Source: Dehalococcoidia bacterium (lineage in GTDB: Bacteria; Chloroflexota; Dehalococcoidia; DSTF01; JACRBR01). Taken from it: a DNA stretch of 34,549 nt. Shown here piece after piece: positions 3,559 through 9,234 of this stretch. Position numbers and translations under genes: made by a program. Numbering within the stretch: position 1 is the stretch's first letter; each line of letters opens with the position of its first letter. Below the pieces are notes generated by a model. It made no database searches. It saw only the letters and a program-made list of their open reading frames with translations, and was not told where the DNA came from. The stretch spans positions 1 through 34,549 of the forward strand of contig JAKFYB010000020.1 in the NCBI GenBank assembly GCA_021731085.1, read 5' to 3'.

Positions 3559-4197
3559 TTGTTCGCAATCACGTTACGTCGACTTTACATGATTCTTTTT
3601 CGATTGCCCTCCCGCCGAGACATGTCGATACTCGCCCTGAACAGGTCGCGGCGAGCGGGGAGAACGGTGTTGAGCGAGGGCGAACTCATTGTCATCGCGC
3701 TGCGCCTGCTGATCCCCCTCCTCATCCTGCGCAACCCACTCGTCGGCGGTTTGGCGGCGATGGCGATCGACGCGCTCGACGTTGTCATCATCGAGCTGAT
3801 TGGTCTCGGCGGCTTCGGCGACCACTACGCGCAGCTCGACAAACTGCTCGACACCTACTACCTGACAATCGAGCTGTACGTCGCATGGAGCTGGGAGATC
3901 TGGGCCAAGGCGCCCGCAGTGTTCCTATACGTATACCGCGTGATCGGCGTCATTCTGTTCGAGATCACGGGCACGCGTTGGCTGCTGCTCGTCTTCCCGA
4001 ACATGTTCGAGAACTGGTGGCTGTACTGCGTCATCGTTGCCCGCTTCTTTCCGAGCATCTACCCACGCTCGTACAAGACCGTGGCGATTCCGATGGTGCT
4101 GTTGCTCATTCCGAAGCTGGCGCAGGAATACCTCCTACACTTCGCGGAGGTGCAGCCCTGGGACTGGATCAAGCGGAATATCCTGGGCATCGCCTAG
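3559..4197 (+). CDS. Multi-pass membrane protein of unknown function
   Basis: An up to 212-residue protein with about four or five hydrophobic segments, e.g. LIVIALRLLIPLLIL, LAAMAIDALDVVIIELIGL, AVFLYVYRVIGVILFEI, WLYCVIVARFF and VAIPMVLLLIPKLA. It is rich in aromatic residues. The first in-frame start is at 3559, but a GTG at 3667 preceded by a purine-rich GGGGAG is an attractive alternative giving 176 residues that start right before the first membrane segment. The gene is divergent from the comM fragment and its stop codon overlaps that of the convergent esterase (CTAG at 4194-4197). No family recognised. Confidence 0.75.
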   Translation: MFAITLRRLYMILFRLPSRRDMSILALNRSRRAGRTVLSEGELIVIALRLLIPLLILRNPLVGGLAAMAIDALDVVIIELIGLGGFGDHYAQLDKLLDTYYLTIELYVAWSWEIWAKAPAVFLYVYRVIGVILFEITGTRWLLLVFPNMFENWWLYCVIVARFFPSIYPRSYKTVAIPMVLLLIPKLAQEYLLHFAEVQPWDWIKRNILGIA

Positions 4198-6582: not shown

Positions 6583-7641
6583 ATGACGACGACTGAAGAC
6601 GTACCGGGCATCGTGTTCGAACGGCTTGTGCCGTGGTTCAGCGAGCACGTCGAGCCGGTGGAATCGCTGACGGCGAAGGTCATCGGCCACGGGCGCTCGA
6701 ATATCACCTACCGCATCGAATCAGGCGACAAGGCCTGGGTATTGCGGCGGCCGCCGCTTTCGCACGTGCTGCCGACCGCACACGACATGGTACGCGAGCA
6801 TCGCGTGATCTCGGCGCTGGAAGGCACCGGCATCCCGGTCCCGGACGCGATCGCCTTGTGCGAAGACAAGGAGGTGATCGGCGCGCAGTTCTACATCATG
6901 TCGTTCGTCGAAGGCATGATTGCGGCCGATCCGGTGGCGTTTGCCGCGAAGTATCCAGAGGAGGCGCGGCGCGGCGTCGGCGAGAACCTGATCGACACGC
7001 TGGCTGACCTCCACGCGGTTGATCCTGCGAAGGTCCGGCTGGGTGACTTCGGCAAGCCGGCAGGGTTCGTCGCGCGTCAGGTGAAGCGCTTCGCGGGCCA
7101 GATCGAGCAGCACAAGACGAAGCGCGACTTCCCGGAGCTGCCCGAGCTGGCGCGGCGCTTGCAGAACGCGATCCCGGAGGAGAGCGGCGACTTCTCGATC
7201 GTCCACGGCGACTATCGCATCGACAACTGTGTGCTCGGCGATGATGGCAAGATCGCGGCGATCCTGGACTGGGAGATGTCGAGCCTCGGCGATCCACTAA
7301 CGGATGTCGGCCTGATCTACATGTACTGGAATGACGCGCAGTCGGGATCGGTGACCGGCGTCGCGAGCAACTCCGTTACTGGCCAACCTGGTTTCCTGAG
7401 CCGGCGTGAGGCGCTGGAGCGCTACGCGACGCACAGTGGCCGCGACCTGAGCAACATCGATTTCTACATCCTGCTCGCGCACTTCAAACTCGCTGTCATC
7501 GTGGAGGGCATCTACGCGCGCTTTCTGGAGGGTGGCACGGTGGGCACGGGATTCGAGGCGACGGGGGCGCAAGCTGTGAACCTCGCGCGAAGCGGGCTTG
7601 CGGTCGCAGACCGGTCGTCGGTGGCGGCGCTACGGGGATAA
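6583..7641 (+). CDS. APH-family phosphotransferase (putative hydroxyacyl-CoA kinase)
   Basis: A 352-residue aminoglycoside-phosphotransferase/choline-kinase fold protein. The N-lobe carries GHGRSNITYRIE and the lysine-bearing strand region AWVLRRPP; the catalytic loop is IVHGDYRIDNCVLG (HxDxxxxN) and the metal-binding segment is AAILDWEMSSLGDPLTDVG. Despite the family name, these enzymes next to ACAD10/11-type dehydrogenases phosphorylate the hydroxyl of 4-hydroxyacyl-CoAs, as in mammalian ACAD10/11 and the LvaA step of levulinate use in Pseudomonas. The divergent arrangement with the dehydrogenase at 5226-6449, sharing a 133-bp intergenic region, supports that reading. Antibiotic resistance is unlikely. 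Confidence 0.88.
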   Translation: MTTTEDVPGIVFERLVPWFSEHVEPVESLTAKVIGHGRSNITYRIESGDKAWVLRRPPLSHVLPTAHDMVREHRVISALEGTGIPVPDAIALCEDKEVIGAQFYIMSFVEGMIAADPVAFAAKYPEEARRGVGENLIDTLADLHAVDPAKVRLGDFGKPAGFVARQVKRFAGQIEQHKTKRDFPELPELARRLQNAIPEESGDFSIVHGDYRIDNCVLGDDGKIAAILDWEMSSLGDPLTDVGLIYMYWNDAQSGSVTGVASNSVTGQPGFLSRREALERYATHSGRDLSNIDFYILLAHFKLAVIVEGIYARFLEGGTVGTGFEATGAQAVNLARSGLAVADRSSVAALRG

Positions 7642-7677
7642 TCTCTCGCCCGTTGGGCGCGCTCCCGGCGATGGTGA

Positions 7678-7693
7678 TGTTTCACGTGAAACA
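7678..7693. promoter_or_regulatory. parS-like ParB binding site 1
   Basis: TGTTTCACGTGAAACA is identical to the widely conserved chromosomal parS 16-mer bound by ParB. The palindrome extends here to GATGTTTCACGTGAAACATC and one base further on each side. It is intergenic, 36 bases after the kinase stop codon. Confidence 0.9.
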
Positions 7694-7858
7694 TCACGCG
7701 GGTGCGAGGCAACGAATTCACGACGTTGGATTGCGGTTCGCTTTTGACGACCTTCTGACTTGAGCTTTGCGTAACGCCGCTGTCGCATGGCACATGGGTG
7801 CTGGACGGCGAGGGCCGACACGCAGGTCAGCCCTCACATGTCGCACGGCGTGTGGTGA

Positions 7859-7874
7859 TGTTTCACGAGAAACA
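7859..7874. promoter_or_regulatory. parS-like ParB binding site 2 (one mismatch)
   Basis: TGTTTCACGAGAAACA differs from the parS consensus by one base in the centre (T to A at 7868), which breaks the symmetry and may weaken binding. It lies exactly 181 bp from site 1. Confidence 0.75.
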
Positions 7875-8039
7875 TGGTGCGGGTGCGAGGCAATGAATCA
7901 CTACGTTGGATTGCGGTTCGCTTTCGAACCGACCACCTCGGGCTGTGAGGGACGCGCACGCTGTCGCATGGCACGATGGTGCTGGACGGCGAGGGCCGAC
8001 ACGCAGGTCAGCCCTCACATGTCGCACGGCGTGCGGTGA

Positions 8040-8055
8040 TGTTTCACGTGAAACA
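8040..8055. promoter_or_regulatory. parS-like ParB binding site 3
   Basis: TGTTTCACGTGAAACA, again a perfect match to the chromosomal parS consensus, exactly 181 bp from site 2 and 111 bp from the end of the hydratase gene. Confidence 0.9.
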
Positions 8056-8166
8056 TTGTTGTCGTATTGAAGTATCGAATGCTGAAGCTGAGGGGTGCCA
8101 TTTGGCGGTTGCACCTTGCTCTGGTGCGTCCTCGGTGCCGGTTCGTGCTGCGCTCGCTGGTTTGAT

Positions 8167-9234
8167 TTAGAGGACGGCTACGGCGCGGCGGGGGATGAGG
8201 CCGATGTAGTCGAGATCGAGGACGACGTTGGCGTTGTAGCGTTCGCGGTCGTCTTCTCCGGCGACTTTCACGGGAACGTCCTCTGTGTTCGGATCTACGT
8301 TCTTGCAGGCGACTAGGCGGAGGCGGAGGGCGCCGATATCCGGGCGGCCGATGTCGATGGTTTCGATGACTTCCGTCCAGGCGAAGAGGGTATCGCCCGC
8401 GAAGGTTGGGTTGGTGTGTGAGCCGCCGTTCCAGGCGGCAATCGCGACGACGTTCTCGAGACCATCGAACGAGAGCGCGTGGGCGACGGAGATGATGTGT
8501 CCGCCGTAGATGATGCGGCGACCGTGGCGGGACGCGTTCTGCTGGTGCTGGTTGAAGTGGACGCGGGCGGTGTTCTGGTAGAGGCGGGTGGCCATCTGGT
8601 GCTCGGCTTCTTCGATGGTGATGCCCTGCGGGTGCGGGATGCGCTCGCCGGCGCTGTAGTCCTCCCAGAAGCGCTGACCGCCAGTCGCCCACGCCTCGAA
8701 CTTCGTGATCGTCGGGAACGCTAGCTGGTCGAGCGAAGCGCGCGCGGGCATCTCGGGGGCGTCATCGGCGTTCGTTGGGGTCTGCGGTTCGCGCTTGTTG
8801 ACCATGACCCAGCGATTGAATCGGAGGACCTCCTCGTCGCGCTGGTTGTAGCCGGTGGTCTCGACCCAGACGACGCCAGTGTCGCCCTTCGAGGTCTCGC
8901 GCCAACCGAGGGTCTTCGTCGTCGCGCGCAGGGTGTCGCCGGTGTAGACGGGGCGGACGAAGCGCAGGTCGGCGTAGCCCAAGTTGCCGGGCGAGTTCAG
9001 GGAGATTTCGCCGACGGCACGACCGAAGACGATGTGGAAGACGAGCATGTCGTGGACGGGGGCGCGGTCGAAGCCCAGGGAGCGCGCGAACTCGTCCGAG
9101 CAGTTCTTTGGGTTGCGGTCGCTGGTGAGGGCGATGTATAGGGCCGTATCGCCGTCGGTGATGGTGCGGGGGACGGGGTTGCGCAGGACCTGCCCGGGGC
9201 CGAGGTCTTCGAAGAAGTTTCCGCCAAGTTTCAT
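8167..9234 (-). CDS. MaoC-type double-hotdog hydratase, mesaconyl-CoA hydratase-like
   Basis: A 355-residue protein with two hotdog domains. The first (about 1-150) contains FFEDLGPGQ, TITDGDTALYIALTSDR, APVHDMLVFHIVFGRAV, NLGYADLRFVRPVYTGDTL and FNRWVMVNKR, very close in pattern to beta-methylmalyl-CoA dehydratase/mesaconyl-CoA hydratase of the ethylmalonyl-CoA and 3-hydroxypropionate pathways. The second (about 180-355) has FWEDYSAGERI, YGGHIISVAHAL and GDTLFAWTEV. It adds water to an enoyl-CoA double bond. Near the dehydrogenase/kinase pair it might hydrate their enoyl-CoA product instead, so the substrate is uncertain. No Shine-Dalgarno is visible before the ATG. Confidence 0.85.
   Translation of the reverse strand: MKLGGNFFEDLGPGQVLRNPVPRTITDGDTALYIALTSDRNPKNCSDEFARSLGFDRAPVHDMLVFHIVFGRAVGEISLNSPGNLGYADLRFVRPVYTGDTLRATTKTLGWRETSKGDTGVVWVETTGYNQRDEEVLRFNRWVMVNKREPQTPTNADDAPEMPARASLDQLAFPTITKFEAWATGGQRFWEDYSAGERIPHPQGITIEEAEHQMATRLYQNTARVHFNQHQQNASRHGRRIIYGGHIISVAHALSFDGLENVVAIAAWNGGSHTNPTFAGDTLFAWTEVIETIDIGRPDIGALRLRLVACKNVDPNTEDVPVKVAGEDDRERYNANVVLDLDYIGLIPRRAVAVL

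What the first reader, a model, noticed from the sequence alone, without database searches (positions are those of the whole stretch)
7678..8055. Three chromosomal parS-type sites built into a 181-bp tandem repeat
Two perfect parS 16-mers (TGTTTCACGTGAAACA) and one with a single central mismatch occur at exactly 181-bp intervals, between convergent genes and without parA/parB nearby. Chromosomal parS sites are usually scattered, so a centromere cluster made by tandem duplication is unusual. The parS motif and flanks are kept while about 40 central bases diverge at constant length, which suggests that spacing and ends are under selection. It also implies this window is origin-proximal.
Basis: partly seen in the sequence, partly recalled or inferred. 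Interest (0 to 1): 0.8.

Follow-up and report, generated by a model that had tools for sequence, protein, structure and literature searches.

The report
Scattered parS sites in dispersed repeats
The three sites look like real docking sites for the chromosome-partitioning protein ParB, but they are one of at least 16 such places scattered over this bacterium's genome inside a family of repeated intergenic elements, whereas in most bacteria such sites sit together near the replication origin.

Summary
In detail: two perfect parS 16-mers and one with a single mismatch lie exactly 181 bp apart between convergent genes. The inference that the window is origin-proximal fails. The same assembly (3.58 Mb, 52 contigs) holds 29 perfect parS (41 with up to 2 mismatches) at 16 loci on 14 contigs. 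They span at least 1.28 Mb (36%) and fit uniform scatter. The usual place of parS in relatives is yidC-jag-kinase-parA-parB; here yidC-jag (contig C18) is followed by its own tandem parS array. Most dispersed copies share an asymmetric flank (TGGTGA-parS-TGCATCGnRTGCGAG). A search blind to the core recovered 20 copies with a parS core: core positions differ from consensus at 5/320, free flank positions at 38/100. So the core is under selection inside a repeat that has been copied around. Relatives mostly have 0-3 parS, usually near parB; G004 (same family) shows its own scattering, with a different flank and at other loci. The encoded ParB is the vertical ortholog but carries Ser where relatives have Gly (Gly201); parA is not found. 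I read this as real ParB-loading sites in a scattered, repeat-borne parS set: a new variant of a known kind. ParB binding is untested.

The parts
7678..7693 (.). parS site 1, perfect palindrome TGTTTCACGTGAAACA; extended 24-bp palindrome 7674-7697
7859..7874 (.). parS site 2, one central mismatch (TGTTTCACGAGAAACA)
8040..8055 (.). parS site 3, perfect palindrome
7678..7858 (+). tandem unit 1 (181 bp)
7859..8039 (+). tandem unit 2 (181 bp)
7672..7677 (+). conserved left flank TGGTGA of site 1 (also 7853-7858 for site 2; CGGTGA 8034-8039 for site 3), shared with most dispersed copies
7694..7708 (+). conserved right flank of site 1, TCACGCGGGTGCGAG (7875-7889 for site 2); consensus TGCATCGnRTGCGAG genome-wide
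7810..7835 (+). dispersed hairpin module GAGGGCCGACACGCAGGTCAGCCCTC in unit 1; similar pieces occur beside other parS and without parS (e.g. C29:7782-7827)
7991..8016 (+). same hairpin module in unit 2
8093..8114 (+). downstream module GGGTGCCATTTGGCGGTTGCAC, 37 bp after parS 3; counterpart of GAGTGCCAnnnGnGGCTTGGAGATC found 31-39 bp after ten parS sites and alone elsewhere
6583..7641 (+). left convergent gene, phosphotransferase (APH) family; orthologs in six same-family genomes have no parS behind them
8167..9234 (-). right convergent gene, MaoC / mesaconyl-CoA hydratase-like

Best explanation
The three 16-mers are real ParB-loading sites (parS). They belong to a lineage-specific family of dispersed intergenic elements whose invariant heart is parS. 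Steps shown: the sites exist, are far beyond chance, share an asymmetric flank with most of about 40 sites at 16 or more loci, have much better conserved cores than flanks, and coexist with a single canonical chromosomal ParB and with a parS array at the usual yidC-jag place. Steps inferred: the array arose by ectopic copying plus local tandem duplication of a compound repeat. ParB clamps (CTP-dependent, as in characterised ParBs) load at each site, slide over the neighbouring kilobases and probably recruit SMC. The result would be many ParB/SMC entry points over the chromosome instead of one origin-proximal centromere. Clustered copies within a few hundred bp would simply raise local loading.
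For: 29 perfect and 41 sites with up to 2 mismatches in the own genome, 0 for the reversed control; about 1e-4 perfect sites expected from base composition (my estimate). 28 of 29 perfect sites are intergenic by a codon-usage gene call. Core-blind flank search: all 9 zero-mismatch and 6 of 7 one-mismatch hits carry a parS core; core 5/320 vs free flank 38/100 departures from consensus, Fisher p 1e-21, and 6e-21 with one copy per locus. One canonical ParB (HTH_ParB, ParB_N and ParB_C domains), vertical ortholog of the same-genus ParB (support 100/98), with the parS-reading Arg173 equivalent kept. The canonical yidC-jag locus carries 4 tandem parS, 3 of them perfect. All perfect sites span at least 1.28 Mb.
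Against: No binding data. Position 201 of the own ParB is Ser; Gly is described as absolutely conserved in ParB orthologs (PMC7383237), though the same paper finds Ser tolerated by parS-specific variants. Draft assembly: contig order unknown, and parA and its upstream kinase gene were not found, so the partition system cannot be shown complete. SMC was not searched for. Flank positions were partly selected by the search pattern; only unselected positions were used in the test.
Confidence: 0.7

Rival explanations
1. Ordinary origin-proximal parS cluster: the window lies near oriC and the tandem array is part of a compact centromere.
For: Tandem parS also sit at the yidC-jag locus. Multi-site centromeres near the origin are normal (PMC7333895).
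Against: Perfect sites on 14 contigs totalling 1.56 Mb; smallest possible arc 1.28 Mb, 36% of the assembly; contig occupancy fits uniform scatter (P 0.70). The dnaA contig C42 and the parB contig C29 hold no parS. Orthologous loci in relatives lack parS.
Confidence: 0.1
2. Hitch-hiking or selfish dispersed repeat: the element spreads as a REP/MITE-like or conversion-borne repeat and parS is only a passenger without cellular use.
For: Shared asymmetric flanks, mosaic intergenic repeats, tandem copies, lineage-specific positions; two genera with different flanks.
Against: Core far better conserved than adjacent flank in a core-blind set, and no copy with a decayed core. No terminal inverted repeat or shared element end was seen in the alignments.
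Confidence: 0.14
3. Regulatory operator: the palindrome with its flanks is the binding site of a transcription regulator, or ParB acts there as a regulator of neighbouring promoters.
For: A promoter-like module (GAGTGCCAnnnGnGGCTTGGAGATC) lies 31-39 bp downstream of ten sites and also occurs alone with plausible -10 boxes.
Against: At the parS loci I saw no -10 box by eye, and about half of the ten modules point into the 3' ends of genes. The identical 16-mer sits at the canonical parS place in relatives.
Confidence: 0.06

Closest known systems
Scattered parS of Bacillus subtilis (8 sites over about 0.75 Mb; PMC8357415)
   Same: Same 16-mer type, multiple sites spread widely, one ParB.
   Different: B. 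subtilis has 8 sites over ~0.75 Mb. Here 29 perfect sites span at least 1.28 Mb of a 3.6-Mb genome, embedded in a repeat family with shared flanks and 160-217-bp tandem arrays.
High-number origin-proximal parS sets (Streptomyces coelicolor, Listeria innocua, up to 20-23; PMC7333895)
   Same: Similar number of sites.
   Different: Those lie near the origin of replication.
Noc-binding sites, scattered over the B. subtilis chromosome (PMC4331003)
   Same: Dispersed sites of a ParB-family protein.
   Different: Here the sequence is parS, and the one canonical ParB keeps Arg173, not Gln as in Noc (PMC7383237).
P. aeruginosa dispersed degenerate parS and half-parS (PMC4368675, PMC10419367)
   Same: ParB targets away from the origin.
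   Different: Those dispersed full sites carry two mismatches and half-sites are heptamers; here the dispersed sites are perfect 16-mers.

Membership tests
chromosomal parS (ParB-loading site) | 16-bp palindrome TGTTTCACGTGAAACA | tested here: met
   Two perfect, one with one mismatch in the window; 29 perfect in genome
chromosomal parS (ParB-loading site) | Canonical ParB with HTH_ParB domain and parS-reading Arg encoded in the same genome | tested here: met
   C29 ParB, Pfam ParB_N/HTH_ParB/ParB_C, Arg at 173 equivalent; Ser instead of Gly at 201
chromosomal parS (ParB-loading site) | Core conserved beyond its surroundings | tested here: met
   5/320 vs 38/100 departures in a core-blind set
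chromosomal parS (ParB-loading site) | Bound by ParB in vitro or in vivo | not testable with these tools
   Needs gel shift or ChIP-seq
origin-proximal centromere cluster | Sites confined to the origin region | tested here: not met
   Sites span at least 36% of the assembly and fit uniform scatter; the window's own distance to the origin is unknown
complete ParABS system | ParA ATPase encoded with ParB | tested here: inconclusive
   Only CpaE-like and Mrp/NUBPL-like ATPases found; relatives G001 and G004 have parA next to parB; kinase and parA may lie in an assembly gap
Noc / Noc-binding sites | Noc paralog with Gln173 and Lys179/184, and non-parS site sequence | tested here: not met
   Single canonical ParB with R-S-S-S; sites are parS
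MITE/REP-type mobile repeat | Terminal inverted repeats or a cognate transposase | tested here: inconclusive
   No TIR seen in flank alignments; RAYT/transposase genes not searched

The most novel reading that the evidence does not exclude
In this lineage ParB-parS has been rewired from an origin centromere to a chromosome-wide set of ParB/SMC loading sites, spread as a parS-cored dispersed repeat. This accompanies displacement (perhaps loss) of parA and a faster-evolving ParB with an otherwise conserved DNA-contact residue changed. A similar dispersal with different flanks occurred in at least one other genus.
Probability: 0.3. Interest if true: 0.8.

Novelty: new variant of a known kind. Interest (0 to 1): 0.6.

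Why it matters
parS sites are held to lie almost exclusively near the origin, and misplaced sites disturb segregation in tested bacteria (PMC5815017, PMC8357415). A natural genome with about 29 intact parS scattered over at least a third of the chromosome and carried by a repeat family would be a natural test of why parS clusters, how many SMC entry points a chromosome tolerates, and how parS sites multiply.

Tried and rejected
Contig order by GC skew: skew is weak and mixed everywhere sampled, so useless. Polarity of the asymmetric element relative to strand composition: no pattern. Rfam: no match. The array folds better than shuffles as RNA (z -5), but inverted repeats explain that and I draw no function from it. 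Homologous positions of dispersed parS between this genome and G004: only yidC-jag is shared. Naming the organism: the named-genome scan leaves out this genome. Proteins rich in TPTNTP repeats hint at Chloroflexota, which is my inference only. A ParB paralog/HGT origin for the C29 parB was rejected by the tree. A first tree with fewer, partly wrong rows was replaced. That the parS-free large contigs form a terminus block was rejected: the number of empty contigs is as expected.

Full report
WHAT IS THERE. The window holds parS 16-mers at 7678, 7859 (one central mismatch) and 8040, 181 bp apart twice, far beyond chance. They lie between two convergent genes, an APH-family phosphotransferase and a MaoC/mesaconyl-CoA-hydratase-like protein. 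The array is two full units plus the third parS; the middle of the units, about 7743-7788, is hardly alignable and its equal length includes compensating small indels.

GENOME-WIDE PICTURE. The window is contig C30 of a 3.58-Mb, 52-contig assembly (96.6% complete). The exact 16-mer occurs 29 times and 41 sites have at most two mismatches; the reversed control gives none. They lie on C1, C2, C5, C7, C8, C9, C14, C18, C19, C20, C23, C24, C30 and C45 (C10 has only a two-mismatch site). Merging sites less than 5 kb apart gives 16 loci with a perfect site. If all contigs belong to one circular chromosome, the smallest arc holding them is 1.28 Mb (36%), and contig occupancy is what uniform scatter predicts. 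By a codon-usage gene call, 28 of the 29 perfect sites are intergenic; the exception is inside an NYN-domain gene on C24. The dnaA contig and the parB contig have no parS. So the window's parS do not show that it is near the origin.

THE ELEMENT. Most sites share an asymmetric flank: TGGTGA on one side, TGCATCGnRTGCGAG on the other. Ten sites also have, 31-39 bp further on, GAGTGCCAnnnGnGGCTTGGAGATC. That module also occurs without parS, usually followed 17-18 bp later by a plausible -10 box, so it is probably half of a promoter; at the parS loci I could not see a -10 box. A hairpin module GAGGGCCGAC-ACGCA-GGTCAGCCCTC is part of the window unit and recurs beside other parS and alone. Multi-site loci have neighbour spacings of 34-217 bp, mostly 162-217, and their interiors are partly homologous to each other and to the yidC-jag array on C18. 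I infer that the arrays descend from one another by ectopic copying and tandem duplication.

IS THE CORE SELECTED? To avoid choosing copies by their core, I searched the genome with the flank only (core as 16 N). All 9 flank-perfect hits and 6 of 7 one-mismatch hits had a parS core with at most 2 mismatches; no copy with a decayed core appeared. In the 20 parS-bearing copies, core positions depart from consensus in 5 of 320 cases, the five flank positions left free by the pattern in 38 of 100 (Fisher p 1e-21; one copy per locus 4/256 against 35/80). The 16-mer is therefore kept while its neighbours drift.

RELATIVES. In 60 related genomes most have 0-3 perfect sites; the highest are G004 (same family, 10) and G059 (same class, 6). 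In most relatives that have any, one or two parS lie about 1-8 kb from parB. Gene order is yidC-jag-kinase-parA-parB in G004, and jag-parS-kinase-parS-parA-parB in G001. The orthologous APH locus in six same-family genomes has no parS. G004's eight dispersed sites share another flank, parS-TWWGTTCT (observed agreement 56, maximum 43 in 5000 simulations); some G059 sites resemble it. Of the G004 parS places, only yidC-jag is clearly shared with this genome. Dispersal of parS-cored elements is thus recurrent and lineage-specific.

PARB AND PARA. The one canonical ParB is on C29 and groups with the same-genus ParB (100/98). It has more private substitutions than its sister (37 to 19 with G004 as outgroup, p 0.02; 31:16 and 33:19 with two other outgroups, p 0.04 and 0.07), while Jag shows no such difference (12:14). 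At the Caulobacter positions 173/179/184/201 it reads R-S-S-S, all readable relatives having Gly at 201. Gly201 is reported as absolutely conserved in natural ParBs, yet Ser is tolerated by parS-specific variants, and Arg173 is invariant in these (PMC7383237). Its upstream neighbour is a cyclase-family gene, not parA. No ParA ortholog and no kinase ortholog were found; only CpaE-like and Mrp-like ATPases. Because the yidC-jag contig ends inside the parS array, both genes may sit in an assembly gap. The ParB keeps its N-terminal LGRGLSALIP stretch, which speaks for a surviving ParA partner (inference).

MECHANISM. Established knowledge: ParB-CTP clamps load at parS, slide and recruit SMC. Inferred here: the window array is one of many such loading places. 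What it changes in the cell is unknown. In B. subtilis, widely spaced strong parS cause SMC encounters, and scattering there has been suggested to serve sporulation (PMC8357415).

COMPARISON. Most bacteria have clustered parS near the origin, and in P. aeruginosa parS must lie within about 650 kb around it (PMC5815017). B. subtilis has 8 sites over 0.75 Mb (PMC8357415); species with 20-23 sites have them near the origin (PMC7333895). I found no described case of a repeat-borne, widely scattered set of this size in the papers searched, but the library is partial. Pairs of exact parS at 162-192 bp are common, so the 181-bp spacing by itself is not special.

VERDICT. Observation confirmed; the parS identity is very likely; the origin-proximal reading is not supported; the unusual fact is the scattered, repeat-borne parS set.

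Noticed in passing
L198:2821-3765 (G000:C29): Own ParB has Ser at the position equivalent to Caulobacter Gly201, Gly in all relatives that could be read, and evolves faster than its same-genus sister.
   Followed up: partly
G000, C18 start (L016) and C29: kinase-parA segment of the conserved yidC-jag-kinase-parA-parB locus is missing from the assembly, and parB sits elsewhere next to a cyclase-family gene.
   Followed up: partly
L212-L221, e.g. L216, L218, L221: Motif GAGTGCCATCnGnGGCTTGGAGATC followed 17-18 bp later by a TAnnnT-like box, apparently a promoter class of this organism; its first half also follows ten parS sites.
   Followed up: partly
G004 loci L186-L194 and G059 loci L282-L287: Dispersed parS in other genera carry another asymmetric flank, TWWGTTCT, shared between members of two families.
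   Followed up: partly
L289:1705 and 1905, L288:1264 (G018): Three parS sites of another genome of the class all carry the flank AATTGCTAAGGC.
   Followed up: no
L020:5171 (G000:C24:36170): A perfect parS lies inside an NYN-domain gene, the only perfect site called as coding.
   Followed up: no
L198, frames near 1300-1940 and 3834-4181: Other dispersed intergenic repeats (readable as HSERSEESS and PSPRRGEGPGVR) are frequent in this genome.
   Followed up: no
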